Positions 3 to 20,039 of a stretch of DNA of 58,406 nt are shown here, in pieces. The translations under genes and the position numbers were made by a program. Each line of letters opens with the position of its first letter. Positions within the stretch are counted from its first letter, which is position 1. The notes under the pieces were generated by a model, which did not search any database, was not told the DNA's origin, and saw nothing but the letters and a program-made list of their open reading frames with translations. The DNA lies in NCBI GenBank assembly GCA_903850915.1, contig CAINMV010000016.1, positions 1 to 58,406 of the forward strand, in the 5' to 3' direction. Source of the stretch: an uncultured Bacteroidota bacterium. GTDB lineage: Bacteria > Bacteroidota > Bacteroidia > UKL13-3.

Positions 3-323
3 CTAGATTATCATAACTTGTATTTAAAATCTGATGTATTATTATTAGCTGATATATGGGAAAATTTTAGAGAAGTATGTTATCAAAATTATAATTTAGA
101 CTGTGAATACTATTATACTGCTCCGTCTTTATCATTTGATTCAATGTTAAAATATACTAAAGTAGAATTAGAGTTATTAACTGACAATGAAATGTTTAAA
201 TTTGTTGAATCTGGTATTAGAGGTGGTATATCTCAAATTAGTAAACGAATGGCAAATGCTAATAATAAATATTATGATAAAGCAATTATTAATCTTAACC
301 GCTTTCGCTCTATTAATGTGTAG
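3..323 (+). CDS. Fragment of family B DNA polymerase (protein-primed, viral/organellar type), cut by window edge
   Basis: The frame is open to the left edge, so the 5' end is missing; TTG at 18 is not a real start. The peptide reads LDYHNLYLKSDVLLLAD and continues through an RGGIS block to ANNKY. The Y-x3-D motif (YLKSD) matches Exo III of family B polymerases. The RGG block resembles the motif linking exonuclease and polymerase domains in protein-primed enzymes (DNA_pol_B_2 family). Such sequences are known from viruses, Polinton-like elements, linear plasmids and invertebrate or fungal genomes, not from Bacteroidota backbone. Similarity seems to stop at about base 273. The remaining codons to the stop at 321-323 read the next gene's start region out of frame. 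GC is about 24% over bases 1-270, lower than in all neighbours. It could be a true insertion remnant or an assembly chimera. Confidence 0.7.
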   Translation, partial: LDYHNLYLKSDVLLLADIWENFREVCYQNYNLDCEYYYTAPSLSFDSMLKYTKVELELLTDNEMFKFVESGIRGGISQISKRMANANNKYYDKAIINLNRFRSINV

Positions 324-723
324 ATGCAACTCCGTTTCAAATAAATTGAAAAACAATTTAGGAAATTTAAATGGGCAATGGGTATTCCACAATGATAAAC
401 AAGAAGAGAATTGGCAATTAGAAATTTGTTATAATGACAAGTCAAAGAGTGGAACGTATGTTTTAAGTAAGTATTTAGATTCTTGGGGAGGTAATAACGA
501 CAAAGTCAAAATTATTTCCAAAGGACCATTTGAGCTAATTGAAGGTCATGATATATACGGTGATAAGGCATATGTTGGCAAAAACAAAAATGACAAGTCG
601 TCTGTTTTTGCAATTACACAAATAGAAAACAGCATTTCAGGTGAATGGTTATTGCGCATTAGAATAATTGAAGATGAAATGTTTGGGAAGCAGATGGATA
701 AGCTTTCTAATAATTGTGATTAA
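274..723 (+). CDS. Small putative lipoprotein, function unknown
   Basis: ATG at 274 begins a typical lipoprotein signal: MIKQ, a hydrophobic stretch (LLILTAFALLM), then Cys in an LLMC context at residue 16. The longer in-frame opening from 187 only reads the polymerase fragment in another frame, so 274 is the likely start. The mature part (about 130 residues) is hydrophilic, with a WVFHNDKQEENWQLEICYN segment and several Gly/Lys/Asp-rich turns. I do not recognise a family; a small secreted beta-rich protein anchored in the outer membrane is an inference. The gene starts right at the polymerase junction, so no native upstream region is visible. GC (about 30%) lies between the polymerase fragment and the integrase. 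Confidence 0.6.
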   Translation: MIKQLLILTAFALLMCRCNSVSNKLKNNLGNLNGQWVFHNDKQEENWQLEICYNDKSKSGTYVLSKYLDSWGGNNDKVKIISKGPFELIEGHDIYGDKAYVGKNKNDKSSVFAITQIENSISGEWLLRIRIIEDEMFGKQMDKLSNNCD

Positions 724-773: not shown

Positions 774-2020
774 TTAATCCTCCAAGAACCCCTTGCTCTT
801 ACTGTCAATTTCCTTTTGATAAACCTCTTTAAGTTTCTTTGAGTAACGTTTGGTCATTTCCTTGGTAGTATGCCCGGCTTGCGACTGTATCGCATCAATG
901 CTCGTGTCGTTTTCTAACTTGTCATCAATGCCGAGATGCTTGACACCGTACATTTTTTTATTGATCTTTAATTTGGCAATCACTTCACGATGCCAAATTT
1001 CTGTTGCACGTTTCCTATCGATATTTACTACGCCTGGTTTAAATCCCGTTGAGAAAATGAAATAATTTTCAGGATATTGTTTCAGATTCATCGATTGCAA
1101 TAATTCCATTGCCTCGGGAGGGATGGCTACAAACCGTCTTTTTTGTGTTTTTGTTTTGCTATGAGTTTCGCCTAGCAAGGTCACCGTTTCCCCTGCTTCG
1201 ATCACGAAACTAGTTGCTTTCTCGTGGTAATTTGAAATCTGCAATGAAACCAATTCCTTTGGTCGGAGGGCGGTATGATAGATCAAAAGAAAGTAAATAA
1301 GGAAGTCGGGATGCACTTTTGCGAGGTGAACATATACTTGCAAACGTTCGTCCGAGGTAAGTGTTTCAAATGACTTTGCCTCCAATTCTTTCAATCGTTC
1401 AAAAGTGGCAATTGGTGACACATCAAACACATCAAATTGCATGAACGACTTATAAACTCCTTTAATGTATTCTATGTATGCATTATAACGGTTATTGCTA
1501 AGATTATTCTTCTCCTTTAATGATCCATCACCGCACGCAGGTGAGCCTTCTTAAATCCATCCACATTGAGTTTGGAGTAGTTTAACTCAGTAATAGCTTT
1601 ATAAATATTTAATAGAATTCCGTTGTAATCGGTTCGTGTTTTCGGAGCAATATGTGGGGAATGTTTTTCGAATGCCCATTTTAAACCATCAATAATCGGC
1701 AATTGACGAATAAGTTCCGCTGGATCAGTGGTTGCCATTTCCTGACTTTCCAGTTCGTTTTCAACTGGATTGTAACCATTGGTGAGCAAAAACTCCATAC
1801 TATCCTTCAAAAGTTTTGCCTCTTGAAAACGTGTTTCAACAGTATGAAAGCGGTTAATTCCGCCCTTTACCTTAAAGCGCTGGTACTCGCCTTCAACCAA
1901 GAAATTGTACCTGATGAACCATTTTTTTCGGATGTCTTTGGGCTGATGGAAATCGGATTTTCCTGCCACTCTGCGGCACCCAAAATAAATTTCAATGTCT
2001 TTAAATTTGGGTAGTATCAT
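774..2020 (-). pseudogene. Tyrosine recombinase/integrase, disrupted by one frameshift
   Basis: Two leftward frames make one integrase. The upstream part (from about 2020 to a TAA at 1517-1519) carries the N-terminal arm and the start of the SAM-like core-binding domain, ending at AHLRAVMDH. The -1 frame then continues GSLKEKNNLSNNRYNAYIEYIK into the downstream frame (ATG 1442 is internal), which has the catalytic domain. That domain shows the first Arg in HTALRPKEL, a KTKTQKRRF basic patch, an AGH motif, and the Tyr in TKRYSKK. The usual HxxR box reads YGVKHLGID, a form common in Bacteroidota integrases. I see no slippery heptamer, so a one-base deletion (or sequencing error) near 1525-1535 is likely. 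ATG at 2020 is preferred to TTG 2059, which lies inside a hairpin. The gene abuts the tRNA-Met 3' end, as in tRNA-targeted islands. Confidence 0.8.
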
Positions 2021-2056
2021 TCTGATATTTTGTCCCCCTTTGTCCCCTTTAACCGA

Positions 2057-2083
2057 CAAAACCCTTATTAAATAAGGGTTTTG
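2057..2083 (-). terminator. Perfect inverted repeat after tRNA-Met, possible terminator or att-linked site
   Basis: A 13-bp perfect palindromic stem (2057-2069 with 2071-2083) lies seven bases past the tRNA CCA end and just upstream of the integrase. It has a GGG/CCC core flanked by A/T runs. It could terminate the leftward tRNA transcript or be part of the recombination site. The T-run is short, so termination is only a likely reading. Confidence 0.5.
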
Positions 2084-2089
2084 ATACTC

Positions 2090-2166
2090 TGGTAGCGGGG
2101 AGCAGTCTCGAACTGCCGACCTCGGGGTTATGAATCCCGTGCTCTAACCAACTGAGCTACCCCGCC
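2090..2166 (-). tRNA. tRNA-Met (CAT anticodon)
   Basis: The minus strand folds as a full cloverleaf. It has acceptor GGCGGGG, D-arm GCTC...GAGC, anticodon loop TTCATAA with CAT, T-loop TTCGAGA, and an encoded CCA end (2090-2092). Two non-ideal pairs lie on the 3' side: G1-U72, and A31 opposite C39. The latter pair is A-U in E. coli elongator tRNA-Met. CAT could also be a lysidine-modified tRNA-Ile, but the D-arm and TTCATAA loop fit elongator Met. The integrase pseudogene lies directly beyond the 3' end. Confidence 0.92.
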
Positions 2167-19671: not shown

Positions 19672-19771
19672 AATTAAAATTCTTTTTATAAATTTATAAA
19701 CCTCAATGTCAAAAGGCATTTTAGGGCTTATTTCTTATCCAAAAAGTTGCAAGAGAATTATTGTAATTCAC

Positions 19772-19879
19772 CTTATCTTTTCCCAAAATTCAGTGAGAAC
19801 TTCAAGATAGGAATTAGCACCCACCAAGTTGGGTTGCCAAGACATCATAGGGCCTAATCCCTCCGTCTTTCTGGATAAG
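19772..19879 (-). ncRNA. SAM-I (S-box) riboswitch upstream of metH
   Basis: On the minus strand the outer P1 stem pairs CTTATC (from 19879) with GATAAG (to 19772). Inside lie the hallmark S-box elements in order: GACGGAGGGATTAGGCCCTA, TGGCAACC, GGTGCTAATTCC, then the P4 region. These form the kink-turn and SAM pocket. It controls the leftward metH part 1, metH part 2 and metF. I see no strong terminator between it and the start at 19671, only a small GAATTA/TAATTC hairpin (about 19755-19769). Control may therefore be translational. The other ~250 bases of this 368-base gap (19672-20039) hold only this leader and the divergent promoter region. Confidence 0.92.
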
Positions 19880-20039
19880 TGATGCAAATATAAGCTATAA
19901 ACGTGAATTTCGAATTAGTAAAGTATAAAAAAACGTAGAAACATAATTTAGTAATTGTATTTTCGTTTGTAACTCATCATTTTTAATTCGTGATTATTTC
20001 TATTACTTTGCTCCACTTAATTAATACATAAACTACGTT

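What the first reader, a model, noticed from the sequence alone, without database searches (positions are those of the whole stretch)
3..276. Fragment of a virus/Polinton-type family B DNA polymerase at the edge of a Bacteroidota window
The peptide with YLKSD (Exo III-like Y-x3-D) and GIRGGIS matches protein-primed/organellar-type PolB, which I know from viruses, Polinton-like elements, linear plasmids and invertebrate or fungal genomes. It is about 24% GC by hand count, against about 42% in the integrase lines I counted. It loses similarity at the very base where a lipoprotein gene starts, inside an AT-rich stretch (261-276). Either this is a rare transfer or remnant of a mobile or viral element, or an assembly join of two organisms.
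Basis: partly seen in the sequence, partly recalled or inferred. Interest (0 to 1): 0.7.

Follow-up and report, generated by a model that had tools for sequence, protein, structure and literature searches.

The report
Stray polymerase fragment, probable assembly chimera
The first 272 bases of this bacterial contig are a piece of a DNA polymerase gene of a kind carried by virus-like elements of eukaryotes, most likely glued onto the bacterial sequence by the assembly program, so it is probably an artefact and not a bacterial gene.

Summary
The sequence observation holds. Bases 3-272 encode 90 residues of a Polinton-type family B DNA polymerase: PF03175 at E 1.2e-11, 52 of 97 columns identical to a PolB on an IMG/VR contig. 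In 7 of 8 relatives similarity ends at residues 87-93, at the ATG at 274 that opens a lipoprotein-like ORF. The gene is cut on both sides, by the contig edge and by the join, and no further piece was found in the own genome. Its GC3 (0.122) is below all 151 ninety-codon segments of the contig's long ORFs, but plain GC and a Markov score do not single it out. Relatives in prokaryote genomes are rare (one other of 395 in the phylum; five loci) and lie on contigs of 3.1-6.7 kb, which I read as misbinned. The assembly shows exact 141-base overlaps in 17 pairs of contig ends, the mark of a k=141 de Bruijn assembler; the PolB end overlaps none of the other 65 readable ends. Best reading: an assembly chimera through an AT-rich word at about 261-281. 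Without reads a real transfer is not excluded, only unlikely.

The parts
3..272 (+). 90-codon fragment of a Polinton-type family B DNA polymerase (Exo III region up to just before the DANNLYG motif), open at the contig edge
   Evidence: PF03175 E 1.2e-11; 52/97 identity to L016 PolB; alignment of 7; 8 pairwise alignments
261..281 (.). presumed join: AT-rich 21 bases readable both as polymerase codons NNKYYDK and as leader plus ATG ATA AA of the next ORF
   Evidence: similarity ends here; the same 21-mer occurs in two IMG/VR contigs, a control 21-mer in none; that it is the join is inferred
274..723 (+). lipoprotein-like ORF (149 aa from the ATG at 274), presumed native to the bacterium
   Evidence: 51% relative over residues 17-149 in one other genome of the family; GC3 0.309, as the contig; lipobox read by eye
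774..2059 (-). tyrosine recombinase split into two ORFs (774-1442 and 1517-2059), integrase of a mobile element
   Evidence: PF00589 E 8e-10 for 774-1442; 87% DNA identity to G001:C135 where the frame is open
2090..2166 (-). tRNA-Met (CAT), presumed attachment site of the element
   Evidence: ARAGORN, Rfam tRNA; use as attachment site inferred

Best explanation
An assembly chimera. The bacterial contig ends inside a mobile element next to tRNA-Met, near the start of a small lipoprotein-like gene. There the assembler ran on into reads of another organism of the same sample, a Polinton/adintovirus-type virus or a eukaryote carrying one, through a short AT-rich word shared by a bacterial gene leader and the polymerase codons NNKYYDK. 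In its own genome the polymerase would copy the element's DNA; here it is a scrap without motif A and without function. Shown: the family, the truncation on both sides, the terminal position, the codon bias, the 141-base overlap signature. Inferred: that the join is false, and the shared word.
For: PolB identity. No further PolB piece in the own genome by profile or by two full-length PolBs. GC3 0.122 against 0 of 151 segments as low, lipoprotein ORF at 0.309. 17 of the 21 exact end overlaps found among 66 readable ends are exactly 141 bases; the PolB end takes part in none and shares no 25-mer with another readable end, nor an 18-mer. Only one other of 395 genomes of the phylum has a relative, on a 5.8 kb contig; five loci of the genome collection lie on 3.1-6.7 kb contigs of four records titled MAG. 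The 21-mer 261-281 recurs in two IMG/VR contigs, in one at an ATG, a control 21-mer in none.
Against: No reads were available, so the join itself is not shown. Plain GC is not extreme (238 of 58134) and the Markov score does not mark the fragment. The native left flank of the lipoprotein ORF was not found, and 8 of 74 contig ends could not be read. None of 42 long ORFs of the window has zero G/C in the 14 bases before its first ATG, as here; 6 have one. One control 21-mer is little.
Confidence: 0.82

Rival explanations
1. A chimeric molecule made in library preparation (ligation or PCR) joined the two DNAs, and the assembler extended the contig along it. Also an artefact, by another route.
For: The foreign piece is short and terminal. 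No other contig end shares it.
Against: A single chimeric read would rarely be kept by an assembler that filters rare k-mers (recalled), and 272 bases exceed a 150-base read; read length is not known here.
Confidence: 0.1
2. A real transfer: the integrative element of this bacterium captured a piece of a eukaryotic Polinton-type polymerase gene, which lies just before the lipoprotein gene.
For: The contig does carry a mobile-element integrase beside a tRNA, and the reading frame of the fragment is intact.
Against: Gene cut on both sides, rest not found; A32-type ATPase not above its cut-off in the own genome; the lipoprotein ORF would have polymerase codons for a leader; same-genus copies of the integrase region (G001, G004) showed no PolB match in the relatives searched with the window's DNA; foreign GC3.
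Confidence: 0.04
3. The fragment belongs to a phage or plasmid polymerase of bacteria, native to the element.
For: Bacterial phages and plasmids also encode protein-primed PolBs (recalled).
Against: No match in 50,697 phage records at E 1; one plasmid match at E 9; best PHROGs E 0.014, function unknown; the closest complete context found is Polinton-type.
Confidence: 0.02

Closest known systems
Polinton/adintovirus-type family B DNA polymerase (PF03175 DNA_pol_B_2)
   Same: Family match and 36-53 identical residues of 86-105 aligned in 8 relatives; one relative sits with rve integrase and A32-type ATPase
   Different: Only 90 residues; motif A (DANNLYG in the relatives) and everything after it are missing, and so is the N-terminal part
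Chimeric contigs of de Bruijn metagenome assemblies
   Same: Foreign sequence at a contig terminus in an assembly with k-sized end overlaps; shared k-mers are named as a cause of chimeric contigs (PMC7299287, passages)
   Different: The passages speak of closely related species and sequencing errors; here the partners would be a bacterium and a eukaryotic virus or eukaryote, joined by a low-complexity word (inferred)

Membership tests
PF03175 DNA_pol_B_2 | score above Pfam's curated cut-off | tested here: met
   44.6 bits, cut-off 25.8
PF03175 DNA_pol_B_2 | Exo III Y-x3-D motif (name recalled) | tested here: met
   Y7 and D11, invariant in 7 aligned sequences
PF03175 DNA_pol_B_2 | polymerase motif A and later catalytic motifs | tested here: not met
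   6 of 6 relatives continue to [LI]DANNLYG; the window does not. So it is a fragment, not a polymerase
Polinton/adintovirus element | PolB together with rve integrase, packaging ATPase and capsid genes (PMC11071308, passages) | tested here: not met
   No second PolB place and no A32-type ATPase above cut-off in the own genome; rve integrase and capsid genes were not searched there
Protein-primed PolB | TPR1/TPR2 subdomains and terminal protein | not testable with these tools
   These parts lie outside the 90 residues
Chimeric contig | terminal foreign sequence in a de Bruijn assembly | tested here: met
   base 1 of contig G000:C16; 17 pairs of ends with exact 141-base overlaps
Chimeric contig | coverage step or missing read pairs at the join | not testable with these tools
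   no reads held

The most novel reading that the evidence does not exclude
A bacterial integrative element at tRNA-Met has captured part of a Polinton/adintovirus-type polymerase gene from a eukaryote or its virus, a cross-domain transfer caught at the edge of a contig.
Probability: 0.04. Interest if true: 0.5.

Novelty: not a real feature. Interest (0 to 1): 0.06.

Why it matters
Mainly as a warning: polymerase genes of Polinton-type elements turn up as strays in prokaryote genome records (this contig end; five contigs of four MAG records; G423:C258) and could be mistaken for gene transfers. If the join were real, it would be a rare transfer from a eukaryotic virus or element into a bacterium.

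Tried and rejected
Phage origin: no phage match at E 1, PHROGs only weak. Plasmid origin: one match at E 9. Plain GC or Markov composition as proof of foreignness: not supported. Exact donor: searches of viral contigs with the peptide, an exact 25-mer over the join, an exact 21-mer and a degenerate pattern found no donor; degenerate patterns and an alignment found two Polinton-type contigs (L016 and L026 are the same contig; L025 the other), no close donor. Solved structures: one chance match at E 0.072 for the fragment, none at 0.01 for the full L016 PolB. Native left flank of the lipoprotein ORF: relatives in 2 of 97 and 2 of 395 genomes, this one included; the 51% relative in G056 has a different N-terminus and does not show the flank. 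A second tRNA-Met on contig C9 was checked as far attachment site and rejected: similar over about 77 bases only. Papers: searches were seen as search listings; PMC11071308 and PMC7299287 as passages; PMC8567270 as passages, nothing used. One search translated the G001 integrase in a wrong frame; one search gave the open frame.

Full report
What is there. The window starts at base 1 of contig C16 of a 37-contig assembly of 2.94 Mb, 99.65% complete. Frame 3-323 is open at the left edge. It matches PF03175, DNA polymerase type B, organellar and viral (E 1.2e-11), and a PolB on an IMG/VR contig with 52 of 97 columns identical.

What kind of polymerase. No phage record matches at E 1, plasmids give one match at E 9, PHROGs at best 0.014 to a family of unknown function. 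Two IMG/VR contigs carry relatives. One, L025, also encodes an rve integrase (6.7e-8, just over its cut-off), a Pox_A32-type ATPase (5.8e-11) and an ORF with a weak capsid match (0.028, below cut-off). For the other, L026, the two further ORFs scanned matched nothing. PolB with an RVE integrase, a packaging ATPase and capsid genes is the Polinton gene set (PMC11071308, passages). L019, from a MAG titled Legionella, has PolB followed by an ORF with an rve match below cut-off (1.9e-5). So the fragment is of Polinton/adintovirus type; whether from a virus or from a eukaryotic genome cannot be told from 90 residues.

Where it breaks. The seven aligned sequences agree up to about ANNKY; 6 of 6 relatives then go on to [LI]DANNLYG, the window does not. 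Of 8 relatives aligned locally, 7 lose similarity at residues 87-93; L023 is stretched to 106. Codon 90 ends at 272. The ATG at 274 opens, in another frame, a lipoprotein-like ORF, and the polymerase frame stops at 321-323.

Does it belong to this bacterium? A profile and two full-length PolBs find only this place in the own genome. A32-type ATPases give two matches below the cut-off at E 0.27 (that profile also rings in 14 of 14 control genomes, so this says little). GC3 of the fragment is 0.122; 151 ninety-codon segments of the contig's long ORFs average 0.300 (sd 0.049), none as low; the lipoprotein ORF is at 0.309. Against that, 238 of 58134 windows have as low a GC, overlapping ones included, and 966 of 1147 segments of the contig fit the contig's own Markov model as badly or worse than the fragment. 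Of 395 genomes drawn from the phylum two have a relative, this one included; the other lies on a 5.8 kb contig. In the genome collection five loci were confirmed, from four records titled MAG, on contigs of 3.1 to 6.7 kb. I read these as misbinned contigs; that is inference.

How the join could arise. Of the 74 contig ends, 66 could be read. Among them the script found 21 exact overlaps (dovetails of 15 bases or more, or common starts of 12 or more); 17 are exactly 141 bases. That is the mark of a de Bruijn assembly with final k of 141; two loci bear contig names beginning k141, which MEGAHIT gives (recalled, as is its default range of k from 21 to 141). The PolB end is in none of the 21 overlaps, shares no 25-mer with another readable end, and no 18-mer. 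The stretch 261-281 reads NNKYYDK in the polymerase frame and is at the same time an AT-rich leader followed by ATG ATA AA. This 21-mer occurs in two IMG/VR contigs whose flanks do not look like the window, in one of them at an ATG that by eye opens a frame; a control 21-mer from the fragment occurs in none. In the window, 6 of 42 long ORFs have one G/C in the 14 bases before the first ATG and none has zero, as here. A shared word of this length would allow the join and explain why similarity ends at a start codon. This step is inferred. Shared k-mers as a cause of chimeric contigs: PMC7299287 (passages), which speaks of related species and sequencing errors.

The bacterial side. The lipoprotein-like ORF has a 51% relative in one other genome of the family and one weak match (5.7e-4) in the class. 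Next come a tyrosine recombinase, split by a one-base deletion relative to an 87% identical copy of the same genus whose frame is open, and tRNA-Met at 2090-2166. The contig therefore probably ends inside an integrative element, where assemblies often break (recalled).

Verdict. The feature is most likely an assembly chimera without function in this bacterium (0.82), or a library chimera (0.10). A real transfer stays at about 0.04 until reads are mapped.

Noticed in passing
1521 (in 774-2059): The tyrosine recombinase is split by a one-base deletion relative to the open copy in G001:C135: a pseudogene or an assembly error.
   Followed up: partly
2058-2192, L004 and L005: The same integrase region occurs in two genomes of the genus; in G004 the similarity covers the tRNA-Met, in G001 it stops just inside the tRNA 3' end, as expected for an attachment core.
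   Followed up: partly
L017, L018, L019, L020, L021 and L023: Polinton-type PolB genes on short contigs of prokaryote genome records (titles: Spirochaetes, Legionella, Alphaproteobacteria, Ectothiorhodospiraceae; G423 unnamed); probably misbinned eukaryotic or viral DNA.
   Followed up: partly
L016:283-3018: This 911-residue PolB matches no Pfam family at 1e-3 as a whole, while a 134-residue piece matches PF03175 at 1.4e-5, just under the cut-off.
   Followed up: no
19770-19881: SAM riboswitch on the minus strand, 67.5 bits.
   Followed up: no
L040 (left end of contig C13): The contig end starts with a run of ACAAT repeats.
   Followed up: no
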